Shown in pieces: positions 604 to 11,010 of a stretch of 64,000 bases of DNA; within the stretch, counting starts at the first letter, position 1; the number at the start of each line of letters is the position of its first letter. The stretch spans positions 62,001 through 126,000 of the forward strand of contig NZ_MWIO01000014.1 in the NCBI RefSeq assembly GCF_004799035.1, in the 5' to 3' direction. Under the pieces are notes generated by a model. It saw only the letters and a list, made by a program, of their open reading frames with translations, did no database searches and had not been told where the DNA came from. A program made the translations under genes and the position numbers. This DNA comes from Rhodanobacter lindaniclasticus (lineage in GTDB: Bacteria > Pseudomonadota > Gammaproteobacteria > Xanthomonadales > Rhodanobacteraceae).

Positions 604-1617
604 TCAGAACTTGAACTCGATCCGCTGTTGCCGCGCACTGACCACGGGCACGCCATTGCGCACCGCCGGCTTGAACTCATAATTCTCGACCGCCTCGATC
701 GCGGCGCGATCGAAGATGCGGCGCGGCTGCGCATCGACCACCCGGACGTTGACGGGCTTGCCGTCGGTACCCACGGTGAACGAAACCACCACCCAACCCT
801 CCTGGCGCGAACGCACGGCGGCGGGCGGGTAGTGCGGTGCGGCCGCCTTGACCAGAACGGCATCGGCCGTCGGTCCGACCGGCGCGGGCGCGGCGACAGC
901 GGAGGCATTGCCGCCCGGCTGGGCGGCATTCTGCGCACCGGCCTGCGCCGACTGCGTCGGCTGTTGCTGTGCCGCCTGGGCTGCCTGCTGCTGTGCGAGC
1001 TGATCGGCGGCGGCCTTGTCGGCGGCGGCCTTCTGCGCCGCCAGCGCGGCAGCCTTCTGCTGATCCAGCGCTTGCTGCTGTTGCTGATCCAGCGTCTTGC
1101 GCTGGGCGTCGAGCTTGGAGCGCAGGATGGTCAGCGTGAAGTTGGTCGGATCGGCCTTGGAGAGCAGATCGATCTCGCGCTGCGCTTCGCCGAAGTCGCG
1201 CGAGTTGATCGCCTGCTCGGCCTGGTTGGCCGCGAACGGGAAGGTCTCGCGCAGCGCATCGGAGGCCACCTTGTTGCCCGGGTCCTTCTCCAGCACACGC
1301 AGGTAGAACTCGAATGCGTTGTTGCCGGCCGGCGCCAGATAACGCTGCTGGCCCATGGCCGAACGCGCTTCATCCACCAGCTGGTTGATGTCCATCCCCG
1401 CCACGTTGACCGGCGGCGGCGTCGCCCGCGTCACTGCGGTGACCGGCGTCGACGGATGCCCGCCCGAATCGGCCAGCATCAGTTCCTGATGCGGCTTGAG
1501 GATGAGAAACCACGCGCCGATGGCCAGCAGCACAAAGACGGCAATGATCGCGATGTAGGTCGGCCGGACGGCCCCACGCGCGCGCCGGCGCGTCTGAAGT
1601 GAATATCGGGTATCCAT
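604..1617 (-). CDS. Energy transducer TonB-family protein
   Basis: A 337-residue inner-membrane protein. It has a basic N-terminus, one membrane segment at about residues 21-42, a periplasmic part of about 90 residues that looks helical and TPR-like, a long Gln/Ala-rich stretch (about 165-230) and a C-terminal TonB domain (about 255-337) with the typical YPPAAVRSRQEG and GTDGKPVNVRVVDA strands. TonB proteins couple the proton gradient to outer-membrane receptors. Unlike classic TonB the linker is Gln/Ala-rich rather than Pro/Lys-rich, and no exbB/exbD lie nearby, so it may be an accessory TonB-like or envelope protein. The ATG at 1617 has a weak GAGAG ribosome site. Confidence 0.8.
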   Translation of the reverse strand: MDTRYSLQTRRRARGAVRPTYIAIIAVFVLLAIGAWFLILKPHQELMLADSGGHPSTPVTAVTRATPPPVNVAGMDINQLVDEARSAMGQQRYLAPAGNNAFEFYLRVLEKDPGNKVASDALRETFPFAANQAEQAINSRDFGEAQREIDLLSKADPTNFTLTILRSKLDAQRKTLDQQQQQALDQQKAAALAAQKAAADKAAADQLAQQQAAQAAQQQPTQSAQAGAQNAAQPGGNASAVAAPAPVGPTADAVLVKAAAPHYPPAAVRSRQEGWVVVSFTVGTDGKPVNVRVVDAQPRRIFDRAAIEAVENYEFKPAVRNGVPVVSARQQRIEFKF

Positions 1618-1948: not shown

Positions 1949-2500
1949 TTACTTCTTGGTCTTGGCCTTCGGCTTTGCGGTCTTGGTGGCCTTGACCACC
2001 TTCGCCGCCGCAGCCTTCTTCGGTGCAGCTTTCTTCGCCGGCTTCTTGGCGACCTTCTTTACCGCGACCTTCTTCACCGCGGCTTTCTTGGCAGCCGCCG
2101 GCTTGCGGACGGCCTTCTTCGCGGCAGCCTTCTTGGCGGCCGGCTTCTTCGCAGCCGGCTTCCGGGCTGCGGCTTTCTTGGCGGCCGGTTTCTTGGCAGC
2201 CGGTTTCTTGGCAGCGGCCTTCTTGGCAGCCGGTTTCTTTGCAGCGGATTTCTTGGCAGTGGCCATGGTTCGTCTCAGCTCCTCATCAGTTGGCAGTGGT
2301 TGCCCAGTAAAAGCATGCAGGAACGCTTCAACCAGCAAGTCGCTGTTCGTCGCGTGCCGAAGATTGTTCACCTGTCGGTGGGTGCGCAAATCAGAAAGCC
2401 GTCGCAGAACATGCAGCGGAATCGAGACCGTGATCTTGCGAACTGCATTGGCTTTTTCACCGTGCTCGACATAGGGCTTGATGAATTTCGTTGTCGCCAT
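1949..2500 (-). CDS. metJ: MetJ methionine repressor fused to H1-like Lys/Ala-rich tail
   Basis: A 183-residue protein in two parts. Residues 1-78 are a clear MetJ ribbon-helix-helix repressor: the DNA-contacting strand RKITVSIP at 21-28, then [12 protein letters not shown] (42-53) and [13 protein letters not shown], nearly the same as E. coli MetJ. MetJ with S-adenosylmethionine represses methionine genes at tandem 8-bp met boxes. After residue 78 the normal MetJ C-terminus is absent; instead there are about 105 residues of AAKKPAAKK-type repeats, like bacterial histone H1-like proteins, which bind DNA without sequence preference. The start at 2500 is chosen because GGGGA lies about 9 bases before it and the MetJ homology begins there; an ATG three codons earlier abuts the ribosome site. 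A tandem met-box operator lies 154 bp upstream. An internal ATG at 2266 could release the tail alone. Confidence 0.9.
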
Positions 2501-3068
2501 AAAACGCATTCCCCGTGATCTGCTGCGAAAGCTATCCCCGAAGATTTCAACTGTCAATTGATTTTCGCCATGTGTTTTCGCCCACCCGAATCACCACCAC
2601 CCCGCCAGCCCCGTGCCGACAAGGGCGTGCCGGCCACGGCCGGTTTTTCCATTGGACGTCTAGACGTCCATGCTTGAAACACGCCATTTGCCGAAACATG
2701 CCTTAAATCGCGTAAAACAGGCCAAATCCAGCAATCGCGGCAAACATCGGCGAATGCGCACCGTCGACGAACGCGTACCGCGAAAGAGCGTGCGCGACGG
2801 CGGATACGGGCGACTCCGGCAAATGAACGGAATGCGACCGGGAGGACGCGGATGACGACCCGGACAACCGCGACGGAAGCGGTTCCCGCGCCGAAGCGGA
2901 CCGCGACGACAACCAGACCGAGGACCGGCGACGCCGAATCCCGGTGACTCGCGGCGACGAAAATCAGCGCGACGATCGATCCGTTCCGTCGTGCAAGCGC
3001 ATGCTCGAGCCGCGTTTTGCAGCGCGCGGAAATGTGCCTGAAGGAAGCTGCCGCACGCCGATGCAAGC
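2501..3068. other. Upstream region of metJ, compositionally skewed, no gene supported
   Basis: About 570 bp between metJ and the gcvH terminator. It contains the met-box pair at 2654-2669. From 2761 to 2940 the plus strand is very poor in T (11 of 180 bases by my count) but not in A (45 of 180). Open frames exist on both strands but none has a ribosome site, a recognisable domain or normal codon use, so I call no gene. It may hold the metJ promoter and a long leader. Confidence 0.5.
2654..2669. promoter_or_regulatory. Tandem met-box operator (MetJ site)
   Basis: Two adjacent 8-mers, GGACGTCT and AGACGTCC, each 7/8 to the MetJ consensus AGACGTCT, together form a 16-bp perfect palindrome. Two or more tandem met boxes are the normal minimal MetJ operator. 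The position 154 bp upstream of the MetJ-coding start suggests autoregulation. Confidence 0.8.
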
Positions 3069-3137: not shown

Positions 3138-3533
3138 TCAGTGATCCTCGTTCTCGATCAGTTCCTGGTAGTCGTTGGCGTCGAGCAACTCATCCAGCTC
3201 GGCACGATCGCTGGGCCGCACGAGGAAGATCCAGCCATCGCCGAAGGCGTCCTCGTTGATCGTCTCGGGCTTGTCGTTGAGCAGCTCGTTGACCTCGACG
3301 ATCTCGCCCGACACCGGCGAATAGATGTCCGAGGCGGCCTTGACCGACTCCACCACGGCGGTGCCGGTGCCGGCCTTCACCGCGGCGCCGATTTCCGGCA
3401 ACTCCACGTAGACCAGGTCCCCCAGCTGGCCCTGGGCGTGGTCGGAAATGCCGACCCGCACCAGGCCGTCGTCTTCAACGCGGGCCCATTCGTGGGATTT
3501 GAGAAACTTCAGATCGCCGGGAATCTCGCTCAT
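3138..3533 (-). CDS. gcvH: Glycine cleavage system H protein
   Basis: A 131-residue lipoyl carrier protein that shuttles the aminomethyl group between the P, T and L proteins of the glycine cleavage system in the cytoplasm. The lipoyl-lysine motif VESVKAASD is present (Lys65), preceded by [12 protein letters not shown] as is usual for GcvH. Length matches the family (about 125-130). The start at 3533 is chosen over one 26 codons upstream because homology begins at [10 protein letters not shown]. It lies 85 bp downstream of gcvT on the same strand; gcvP is not in the window. Confidence 0.95.
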
Positions 3534-9399: not shown

Positions 9400-11010
9400 A
9401 TGAGCGAGCGCGAAACCATGGAATACGACGTCGTCGTGGTCGGCGCCGGCCCTGCCGGCCTGGCATTCGCGATCCGCCTGAAGCAGCTGAAGCCGGACAC
9501 GAGCGTGTGCGTGATCGAGAAGTCATCGACCATCGGCGCGCAGATCCTCTCCGGCGCGGTGATCGAGCCGCAGCCGCTGGATGCCCTGCTGCCCGGCTGG
9601 CGCGACAACCCGCCGCCGATCTGCGTGCCGGCCGGCAAGGACGAGTTCTGGCTGCTGTCGAAAACCGGCGGCACCCGGCTGCCGGTGCCGCCCGGCATGC
9701 GCAACCACGGCAACTTCATCGTCTCGCTGGGCGCGCTGTGCGCGTGGCTGGCGCCGCAGGCCGAGGCGCTGGGCGTGGACGTGTTCCCCGGCTTCGCTGC
9801 CGCCGACAACATCTACAACGAGGACGGTTCGGTCGCCGGCGTGCGCATCGGCGACATGGGCGTGGCCAAGGACGGCACGCACAAGCCCGGCTACACCGAA
9901 GGCATCGACATCAAGGCCAAGCTCACCGTGCTGGCCGAAGGCGCCCGCGGCAGCCTTACCAAGCAGCTGGTCAAGCGCTTCGGGCTCGATGCCGGCAGCG
10001 ATCCGCAAGGCTATTCGATCGGCATCAAGGAGCTGTGGCAGCTACCCGCCGGGCGCGTCACGCCCGGCAAGATCGCGCACAGCATCGGCTGGCCCGCCGA
10101 TACGCATACCTATGGCGGCAGCTTCCTCTACCACCTGGACAAGGATCGCATCGCGCTGGGCTACATCAGCGGGCTCGACTACAGCGACCCGAAGTACCAG
10201 CCGTGGGAAGCGTTTCAGCAATGGAAGAACCACCCGAGCGTGAAGTCGCTGCTGGAAGGCGGCACCATCCTCTCGGCCGGTGCACGCGCCATCGTCACTG
10301 GCGGCTGGCAGTCGCTGCCGAAGTGCGAGATGCCGGGCGCCATCCTGATCGGCGACACCGCCGGCCTGCTCAACGTGCCGAAGATCAAGGGCACCCACCA
10401 GGCGCTGAAGAGCGGCATGCTGGCCGCCGAACACCTCGCCGCCAGCGGTCTCGACGCCACCGGCTTCGACGCGAAGCTGCGCGGCTCCGAGGTGATGGCC
10501 GAGCTGAAGAAAGTGCGCAACGTCAAACCCGGCTTCAAGAAGGGCCTGTGGTTCGGCCTGCTCAACGCCGCCTGGGAAACCGTCACCGCCGGCCTGTCGC
10601 CGTGGACGCTGAAGAACAAGGCCGACTGGTCCACCCTGCACAAGCTGGGCGAATGCGAGGAGCCCAAGCGCGACTACGTGCAACGCACGCTGCCTCCGCG
10701 CGACCGCCTGGCCGGCGTCTACTTCGCCGCCACCGAGCACGACGAGGACCAGCCGGTCCATCTGCACGTGGCCGACACCGACATCTGCGCCACCCGTTGC
10801 GTCGAGGAATACGACAACCCCTGCACCCGCTTCTGCCCCGCCCAGGTCTACGAGATGGTGGCCGACGAAAGCCAGCCGCACGGCAAGCGCCTGCAGATCA
10901 ATTCCGCCAACTGCGTGCACTGCAAGACCTGCGACATCAAGGATCCGTACGAGATCATCACCTGGGTGACGCCGGAGGGTGGCTCGGGGCCGAATTACCA
11001 GAACCTCTGA
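9400..11010 (+). CDS. Electron transfer flavoprotein-ubiquinone oxidoreductase
   Basis: A 536-residue inner-membrane-associated flavo-iron-sulfur protein that passes electrons from reduced ETF (from acyl-CoA and related dehydrogenases) to ubiquinone. The FAD-binding GAGPAG is at about 15-20. The family-typical IGDTAGLLNVPKIKGTHQALKSGM block is in the middle, written here by its ends GDTAGLLNVP and KSGMLAAEHL. The 4Fe-4S domain near the end has CTRFCPAQVYE and CVHCKTCDIKDP, and the terminus ITWVTPEGG is almost invariant. Length fits the family. GGAG precedes the ATG at a good distance. Its partners etfB and etfA are 4.3 kb downstream on the same strand, separated by two polysaccharide genes. 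Confidence 0.95.
   Translation: MSERETMEYDVVVVGAGPAGLAFAIRLKQLKPDTSVCVIEKSSTIGAQILSGAVIEPQPLDALLPGWRDNPPPICVPAGKDEFWLLSKTGGTRLPVPPGMRNHGNFIVSLGALCAWLAPQAEALGVDVFPGFAAADNIYNEDGSVAGVRIGDMGVAKDGTHKPGYTEGIDIKAKLTVLAEGARGSLTKQLVKRFGLDAGSDPQGYSIGIKELWQLPAGRVTPGKIAHSIGWPADTHTYGGSFLYHLDKDRIALGYISGLDYSDPKYQPWEAFQQWKNHPSVKSLLEGGTILSAGARAIVTGGWQSLPKCEMPGAILIGDTAGLLNVPKIKGTHQALKSGMLAAEHLAASGLDATGFDAKLRGSEVMAELKKVRNVKPGFKKGLWFGLLNAAWETVTAGLSPWTLKNKADWSTLHKLGECEEPKRDYVQRTLPPRDRLAGVYFAATEHDEDQPVHLHVADTDICATRCVEEYDNPCTRFCPAQVYEMVADESQPHGKRLQINSANCVHCKTCDIKDPYEIITWVTPEGGSGPNYQNL

What the first reader, a model, noticed from the sequence alone, without database searches (positions are those of the whole stretch)
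1949..2500. MetJ repressor fused to a histone H1-like Lys/Ala tail
The sequence shows an intact 78-residue MetJ core running in frame, without a stop, into about 105 residues of AAKKPAAKK repeats that replace the normal MetJ C-terminus. Ribbon-helix-helix repressors normally bind only specific operators; an H1-like tail would add strong non-specific DNA binding, so methionine control could be coupled to nucleoid compaction, tighter repression or DNA looping. I do not recall such a fusion being characterised experimentally.
Basis: partly seen in the sequence, partly recalled or inferred. Interest (0 to 1): 0.8.

Follow-up and report, generated by a model that had tools for sequence, protein, structure and literature searches.

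The report
Methionine repressor with nested histone gene
A bacterial gene for a methionine repressor runs in frame into a histone-like DNA-packing tail, and the DNA at the join is kept so exactly across the bacterial family that it very probably also starts a separate copy of the histone-like protein.

Summary
In detail: on the minus strand, 1949-2500, a 78-residue MetJ core runs without a stop into a 105-residue Lys/Ala tail. It is no sequencing error: 227 of 233 family genomes held (Rhodanobacteraceae by named relatives; 26 of 26 genera) have MetJ, and all 110 complete distinct loci examined end in such a tail. The tail begins with ATG in 111 of 112 distinct loci, behind GAGGAG. The 48 nt before it encode the end of MetJ yet are nearly frozen at synonymous sites: 3.5 against 16.6 synonymous changes per codon, P = 5e-8. 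Tail-less MetJ genes of sister families choose codons freely there. Some genomes of families f2, f3, f4 and f6, which lack MetJ, carry a free histone-like gene near gcvH whose non-coding leader still resembles this block, clearly in f3 and f6. One genus shows the reverse: MetJ and tail fused, block and ATG lost. Best explanation: one gene, two products, a SAM-repressor/histone fusion and a free H1-like protein from an internal start. Neither product was shown by experiment. New variant of a known kind.

The parts
1949..2500 (-). full-length MetJ-H1 fusion ORF, 183 aa, 19.5 kDa, pI 11.4
2267..2500 (-). MetJ core, 78 codons
   Evidence: PF01340 2e-35, NCBIfam 125.6 bits against cut-off 110; PDB 1cma
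1949..2266 (-). nested ORF for a free H1-like protein (inferred), ATG 2264-2266, 105 aa, 10.6 kDa, pI 12.0
   Evidence: ATG kept in 111 of 112 distinct loci; composition
2267..2314 (-). conserved 48-nt leader of the nested gene, inside the MetJ coding sequence
   Evidence: position
2279..2284 (-). GAGGAG, Shine-Dalgarno sequence of the nested start
   Evidence: anti-SD duplex -11.5 kcal/mol against -5.7 for the metJ start
2654..2669 (.). MET-box pair GGACGTCTAGACGTCC upstream of metJ, candidate autoregulatory operator
   Evidence: 14 of 16 to the consensus; 80 of 112 distinct loci have at least 12 of 16 at 140-200 nt upstream of ATG
3138..3533 (-). gcvH, upstream syntenic neighbour
   Evidence: PF01597; synteny
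604..1617 (-). TonB-like protein, downstream neighbour
   Evidence: PF03544

Best explanation
One gene encodes two proteins. From the metJ start, ribosomes make MetJ with an H1-like tail. From an internal ATG (2264-2266) with its own Shine-Dalgarno sequence and leader, they (or ribosomes on an internally started mRNA) make the tail alone as a small nucleoid protein. Shown by sequence: the fusion, its family-wide conservation, the frozen leader at synonymous sites, the retained ATG, and leader-like sequence upstream of free H1 genes in genomes that lack MetJ. Inferred: actual internal initiation; DNA binding and compaction by the tail; tighter or longer-lived binding of the fused repressor; SAM-dependent repression of the whole unit through the upstream MET boxes; and an ancestral metJ-h1 overlap in which some families lost metJ and kept h1 with the leader.
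For: (1) Synonymous changes on the tree in the 15 codons before the junction: mean 3.5, against 16.6 in the other 57 core codons, P = 5e-8; GC3 0.36 against 0.70; AGA in 105 of 111 loci at codon -2, against 3.1% of Arg codons elsewhere in the core (L100 left out of the last two counts). (2) The tail-less MetJ of f9, f12 and f8 has nearly the same residues there with free codons (22 loci). (3) ATG in 111 of 112 distinct loci, also in the 10 loci where one codon before it is missing. (4) L100 (genome G151) lost GAGGAG, AGA and ATG (now GTG) but kept the fused tail; 10 of 15 block codons are off consensus, against a mean of 1.4 and a maximum of 7 in the other 111. (5) Free H1 genes near gcvH in genomes without MetJ carry leaders resembling the block: f3 scores 48-50 (three loci) and f6 39 (one locus), against shuffle maxima of 22-24; a metJ DNA profile finds these four at E 7.5e-5 to 7e-3, only at its 3' end; f4 scores 28-31 (one locus) against shuffle maxima of 20-21. 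(6) The anti-SD duplex is stronger at the internal than at the metJ start: -11.5 against -5.7 in the window, means -10.4 and -5.9 over 112 loci.
Against: No ribosome profiling or proteomics was available for this start. The spacing from GAGGAG to ATG is 12 nt in most loci (9 where the codon is missing), longer than the usual optimum (recalled). Predicted mean unpaired probability is only 0.38 for the SD and 0.45 for the ATG. Constraint reaches 48 nt upstream, more than an SD needs, so part of the block has no assigned role. The f2 leaders resemble the block only weakly (scores 25-36 against shuffle maxima of 19-26), and 20 of the 24 standalone loci were picked by me from matches to a leader-like pattern. 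No standalone H1 gene was seen beside gcvH in the other 11 of 16 genomes looked at outside the family. Only one lineage shows the reverse loss.
Confidence: 0.74

Rival explanations
1. The block is mainly an internal promoter (perhaps with the ribosome-binding site): free H1 comes from its own short mRNA begun inside metJ.
For: Constraint extends to -48, with CTGGGC kept far upstream in the fetched f2, f3 and f6 leaders at variable distance from GAGGA(G/A) (the pattern itself asked for these two words, except in L314, L315, L318 and L323, found first without it).
Against: No sigma-70-like promoter in 1900-2800 on either strand (other promoter types not covered). It would still need the SD and ATG, so it changes how free H1 is made, not whether.
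Confidence: 0.2
2. Only the fusion is made; the frozen codons serve a programmed pause (SD-like sequence plus rare codons) that lets the MetJ core fold before the tail is made.
For: Rare codons and an SD-like sequence at a domain border.
Against: It explains neither the retained ATG where a codon is missing, nor the leader before free H1 genes in genomes without MetJ, nor L100, which keeps the fused domain border without the block.
Confidence: 0.08
3. The block is a structured RNA element or an overlapping gene in another frame or on the other strand.
For: RNAalifold on the widest alignment window gave z -4.9 against 50 column shuffles. Two antisense frames are open over the 90-nt stretch in 75 and 97 of 111 loci.
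Against: z is -1.2 and +0.6 in narrower windows; single sequences fold no better than shuffles (z 0.19 to 0.95); no Rfam family near its gathering score; sense +1 and +2 frames fully open in only 3 and 1 of 111; leaders in f3 and f6 differ from the block by indels that would break other frames.
Confidence: 0.05
4. The fusion is a sequencing or assembly artefact (missing stop).
For: None found.
Against: 110 of 110 complete distinct loci are fused, some from single-contig genomes.
Confidence: 0.01

Closest known systems
MetJ methionine repressor (PDB 1cma/1mj2)
   Same: Core residues 6-78, beta-strand KITVSIP, MET-box operator upstream
   Different: No C-terminal part after residue 78; H1-like tail; DERTRR changed to DLRTHR in this genus. 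Leyn 2014 (PMC4239095, 12 passages seen) reports MetJ in six gamma-proteobacterial groups and SamR in Xanthomonadales; the words histone, fusion and C-terminal do not occur in it
Chlamydial Hc2 / bacterial histone H1-like proteins
   Same: Lys/Ala-rich, almost no acidic residues, repeat-driven length variation
   Different: Below curated cut-offs (Pfam HC2 33.4 of 40; NCBIfam 26.8 of 80 and 19.9 of 135); encoded inside a repressor gene
AlgP and PhaF of Pseudomonas
   Same: A protein domain carrying a KPAA-type H1-like tail thought to bind DNA (PMC9239181, passages seen)
   Different: There the tail hangs on a helical or granule-associated protein; no nested start is described in the passages seen
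In-frame internal starts / N-terminal proteoform pairs in bacteria
   Same: Two proteins of one frame (Salmonella census, PMC11005335, abstract read)
   Different: Here the short form would be a different functional unit, with a leader resembling that of free genes in sister families

Membership tests
MetJ | curated profile cut-off | tested here: met
   125.3 bits against 110
MetJ | MET-box operator at its own promoter | tested here: met
   14 of 16 at 2654-2669; at least 12 of 16 at 140-200 nt upstream in 80 of 112 distinct loci, at least 11 in 98; the 14 below 11 include all fetched g26 and g35 loci
MetJ | targets in methionine/sulfur genes | tested here: inconclusive
   own genome: 23 sites with up to 3 mismatches against 6 for the reversed control; contexts read for 15: metJ-h1 itself, metX (14 of 16) and between cysG and a CysB-like LysR gene below its cut-offs (13 of 16); in the other 12 I recognised no methionine gene and tested none by profile
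MetJ | E. coli-type C-terminal part (residues 79-104) | tested here: not met
   match ends at residue 78 of 104; also shortened in tail-less f12, f9 and f8 MetJ
MetJ | SAM as corepressor | not testable with these tools
   DERTRR is DLRTHR in this genus; its nearness to the SAM pocket is recalled
Histone H1-like (HC2) | curated profile cut-off | tested here: not met
   Pfam 33.4-34.5 of 40, NCBIfam 26.8-27 of 80; a six-frame genome search gave 40.5 bits on a stretch with one stop inside
Histone H1-like (HC2) | DNA binding | not testable with these tools
   composition only
Nested in-frame gene | conserved internal start with SD and synonymous constraint | tested here: met
Nested in-frame gene | short product observed | not testable with these tools
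   no ribosome profiling or proteomics data

The most novel reading that the evidence does not exclude
A single SAM-controlled gene supplies both a sequence-specific repressor armed with a DNA-condensing tail and a free bacterial histone, so that the methionine/SAM state sets the amount and placement of a nucleoid protein. The free histone genes near gcvH in sister families, perhaps including Xanthomonadaceae, are the remains of this gene after the repressor half was lost.
Probability: 0.35. Interest if true: 0.78.

Novelty: new variant of a known kind. Interest (0 to 1): 0.63.

Why it matters
It would join methionine regulation and chromosome packing in one gene. It shows a nested-gene leader frozen inside a protein domain, with natural losses in both directions (MetJ lost while a leader-like sequence stays, and the leader lost while MetJ stays), which makes the function of each half directly testable. 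A MetJ-H1 fusion, and such an origin for H1-like genes of the order, were not seen in the rows listed by the searches (open-licence papers only; several lists were capped).

Tried and rejected
Rfam search of 1900-2750: six matches, all far below gathering scores. Single-strand folds and RNAalifold: no consistent structure. A hammerhead-like or riboswitch reading of CTGATGAG...CGAA was considered and dropped, because those bases vary between genera. Sigma-70 promoter scan: none. A second copy of the block in the own genome: none with up to 3 mismatches. Other-frame genes: sense frames closed, two antisense frames mostly open, not pursued. Structure prediction of the 183-aa protein with a 31-row alignment: mean pLDDT 53, pTM 0.16, uninformative, so no fold search was made. 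Separate H1 gene in G151 to compensate for the lost start: G151 has another Lys/Ala-rich protein, but HC2 matches (fused tails included, E up to 10) occur in 22 of the 25 genomes searched, so this says nothing. Anti-SD energies of seven window starts: the gcvT start was first set one codon off; redone, it gives the same -3.9.

Papers; 348 papers held two of three terms, 20 listed, none on a MetJ-H1 fusion by title or abstract start; 69, 10 listed; 43, 12 listed; 71, 10 listed; 124, 40 listed, none of the listed holding the word MetJ. MetJ with Rhodanobacter gave one paper (PMC12146267); its passages report a proteomic change of MetJ in strain R12 but not its parts. PMC8578834 lists small 'Histone H1' genes in Xanthomonas campestris (passage). 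PMC3228920: term search only, no occurrence of Xanthomon or histone. on internal starts: listings; of these only the abstract and outline of PMC11005335 were read.

Full report
Check of the observation. The ORF is on the minus strand: ATG 2500, TAA 1949-1951, 183 aa. Residues 1-78 are MetJ: 125.3 bits against the NCBIfam cut-off of 110, Pfam E 3.2e-35, and alignment to residues 6-78 of the repressor of known structure. Residues 79-183 are 40 Lys and 41 Ala of 105, with weak HC2 similarity below the Pfam cut-off (33.4 of 40).

How widespread. In one search the own genome and 34 of 35 other genomes of the genus have MetJ. In one search, 227 of 233 genomes of the family have it, in 26 of 26 genera. 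I read 142 loci. 120 carry the family type and 22 (20 distinct) the tail-less type of families f8, f9 and f12. After removal of duplicates and of loci with under 60 nt after the core, 112 distinct family loci remained, from 25 of the 26 genera (g44 was not fetched). 110 of them are complete and 2 are cut by a contig end. All 110 end in a tail of 34-309 aa (median 99), with 27-47% Lys, at least 92% K/A/P/V/T/R/S and at most 1% acidic residues. Named relatives with the junction block are Rhodanobacter, Dyella, Luteibacter, Frateuria, Dokdonella, Tahibacter, Mizugakiibacter and Oleiagrimonas, among others, so the family is Rhodanobacteraceae. That the window itself is Rhodanobacter is inferred from sequence likeness.

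The junction. In 111 of 112 distinct loci the tail opens with ATG; one has GTG. In 10 loci (genera g43 and g30) the codon before the ATG is missing and the ATG remains. The 15 codons before the junction show a mean of 3.5 synonymous changes on the tree, against 16.6 for the other 57 codons of the core (Mann-Whitney P = 5e-8; against columns with conserved residues only, 17.4 in 38 columns, P = 1.4e-7). GAGGAG is unchanged in all but one locus. AGA, 3.1% of Arg codons elsewhere in the core, stands at codon -2 in 105 of 111 loci. The conserved stretch runs from -48 to about +5 around the ATG and falls off on both sides. The tail-less MetJ genes of f9, f12 and f8 encode nearly the same [11 protein letters not shown]-type end with free codon choice. 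The protein does not demand these bases.

Natural loss in one direction. Locus L100 (genome G151, the only g29 genome held) has GAC GAG for GAG GAG, AAG for AGA and GTG for ATG, and 10 of its 15 block codons are off consensus; the other 111 loci have a mean of 1.4 and a maximum of 7. In the rest of the core it is ordinary (24 of 57 off consensus, others mean 24.2). It keeps a long fused Lys/Ala tail. The fused protein can thus persist without the internal start.

Natural loss in the other direction. The 120 MetJ-positive genomes (348 searched in the order) belong to families f1, f8, f9 and f12. I looked beside gcvH in 16 genomes outside the family: stretches of about 3.4 kb for all 16 and 9-16 kb for 14 of them. 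Standalone Lys/Ala-rich genes lie downstream of gcvH in five: G036 and G047 (f2), G037 (f3), G040 (f6) and G049 (f4), found without any leader criterion. None was seen in the other 11. The leaders of the f3 and f6 genes align with the block over most of its length (scores 48-50 and 39, shuffle maxima 22-24, tail-less metJ ends at most 21). A metJ DNA profile finds them at E 7.5e-5 to 7e-3, only at its 3' end. The f4 leader keeps the upstream half (28-31, shuffle maxima 20-21). The f2 leaders keep CTGGGC and a GAGGAG-type SD, with scores of 25-36, close to shuffle maxima of 19-26, so f2 alone would not convince. A leader pattern across the order matched 173 of 346 genomes, the fused family and chance matches included. 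Of 20 leader-like matches that I picked from f2 (18) and f3 (2), plus the four standalone loci of f2, f3 and f6, 24 of 24 open a Lys/Ala-rich ORF at that ATG, and 22 of 24 have gcvH 383-1730 nt upstream on the same strand; in two no gcvH was found in the piece. The shared letters encode the ancient [11 protein letters not shown] end of MetJ, so the leader most likely descends from metJ: an overlapping metJ-h1 gene was ancestral, and some families lost metJ and kept h1 with its leader. This step is inference.

How it most likely works. The metJ promoter region carries a MET-box pair (14 of 16) at 2654-2669. At 140-200 nt before the start, 80 of 112 distinct loci have at least 12 of 16 and 98 at least 11; the fetched g26 and g35 loci do not (in shuffled 500-nt upstream stretches the best match reached 12 in 43 of 2840). 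In the own genome 23 sites with up to 3 mismatches were found, against 6 for the reversed pattern. Of 15 contexts read, one is metJ-h1 itself, one metX (14 of 16) and one lies between cysG and a CysB-like gene (13 of 16); in the other 12 I recognised no methionine gene. MetJ thus likely represses metX and itself; the wider regulon is open. The internal start has the strongest anti-SD pairing of the seven starts examined in the window (-11.5 kcal/mol; next -10.8; metJ -5.7). Two products follow: a 19.5 kDa repressor with a basic tail and a 10.6 kDa basic protein of pI 12. DNA binding by the tail is inferred from likeness to AlgP and Hc2. Against easy initiation: a spacing of 12 nt, and only moderate predicted accessibility (SD 0.38, ATG 0.45 unpaired). 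The function of the upstream half of the block is unknown; promoter activity is the main rival (no sigma-70 match).

Known and new. MetJ, H1-like tails (AlgP, PhaF; PMC9239181 passages) and in-frame internal starts (PMC11005335 abstract) are each known. Their combination, and the leader-like sequence before free H1 genes, were not seen in the rows listed; the library holds open-licence papers only, and most lists were capped. One paper reports MetJ abundance changes in a Rhodanobacter strain by proteomics without naming its parts (PMC12146267, passage). Verdict: by sequence evidence a real, deeply conserved gene that very probably makes two products; a new variant of a known kind, unproven at the bench.

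Noticed in passing
window 2267-2500: In this genus the MetJ motif DERTRR reads DLRTHR (DLRTYR or DLRTER in some related genera): two residues recalled to lie near the SAM pocket are changed, so corepressor use may differ.
   Followed up: no
L091-L095 (g26), L081, L082, L108-L110 (g35): These loci keep the fusion but have at most 10 of 16 MET-box matches at 140-200 nt upstream of metJ, so autoregulation may be lost there.
   Followed up: partly
L277, L278, L286, L291, L293: A second Lys/Ala-rich protein (open frames 243-432 aa) beginning MATTRK/MATTKK/MAMTRK and ending with a conserved HISxE(E/D)AVAxIQALLxAK motif; also proteins that look by eye like DNA topoisomerase I with Lys/Ala-rich stretches (L292, L294, L296).
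   Followed up: partly
L324 (G049, family f4), around 9752-9791: Standalone H1-like gene between gcvH and a TonB-like gene whose leader keeps TTTTAACCGGGCAAGCAACTGCCAAC, the upstream half of the metJ block, with a different SD (AGGAG).
   Followed up: yes
leaders in L359-L378: CTGGGC about 35-50 nt before the H1 ATG is kept at variable distance from GAGGAG (the search pattern asked for it); its role is unexplained.
   Followed up: partly
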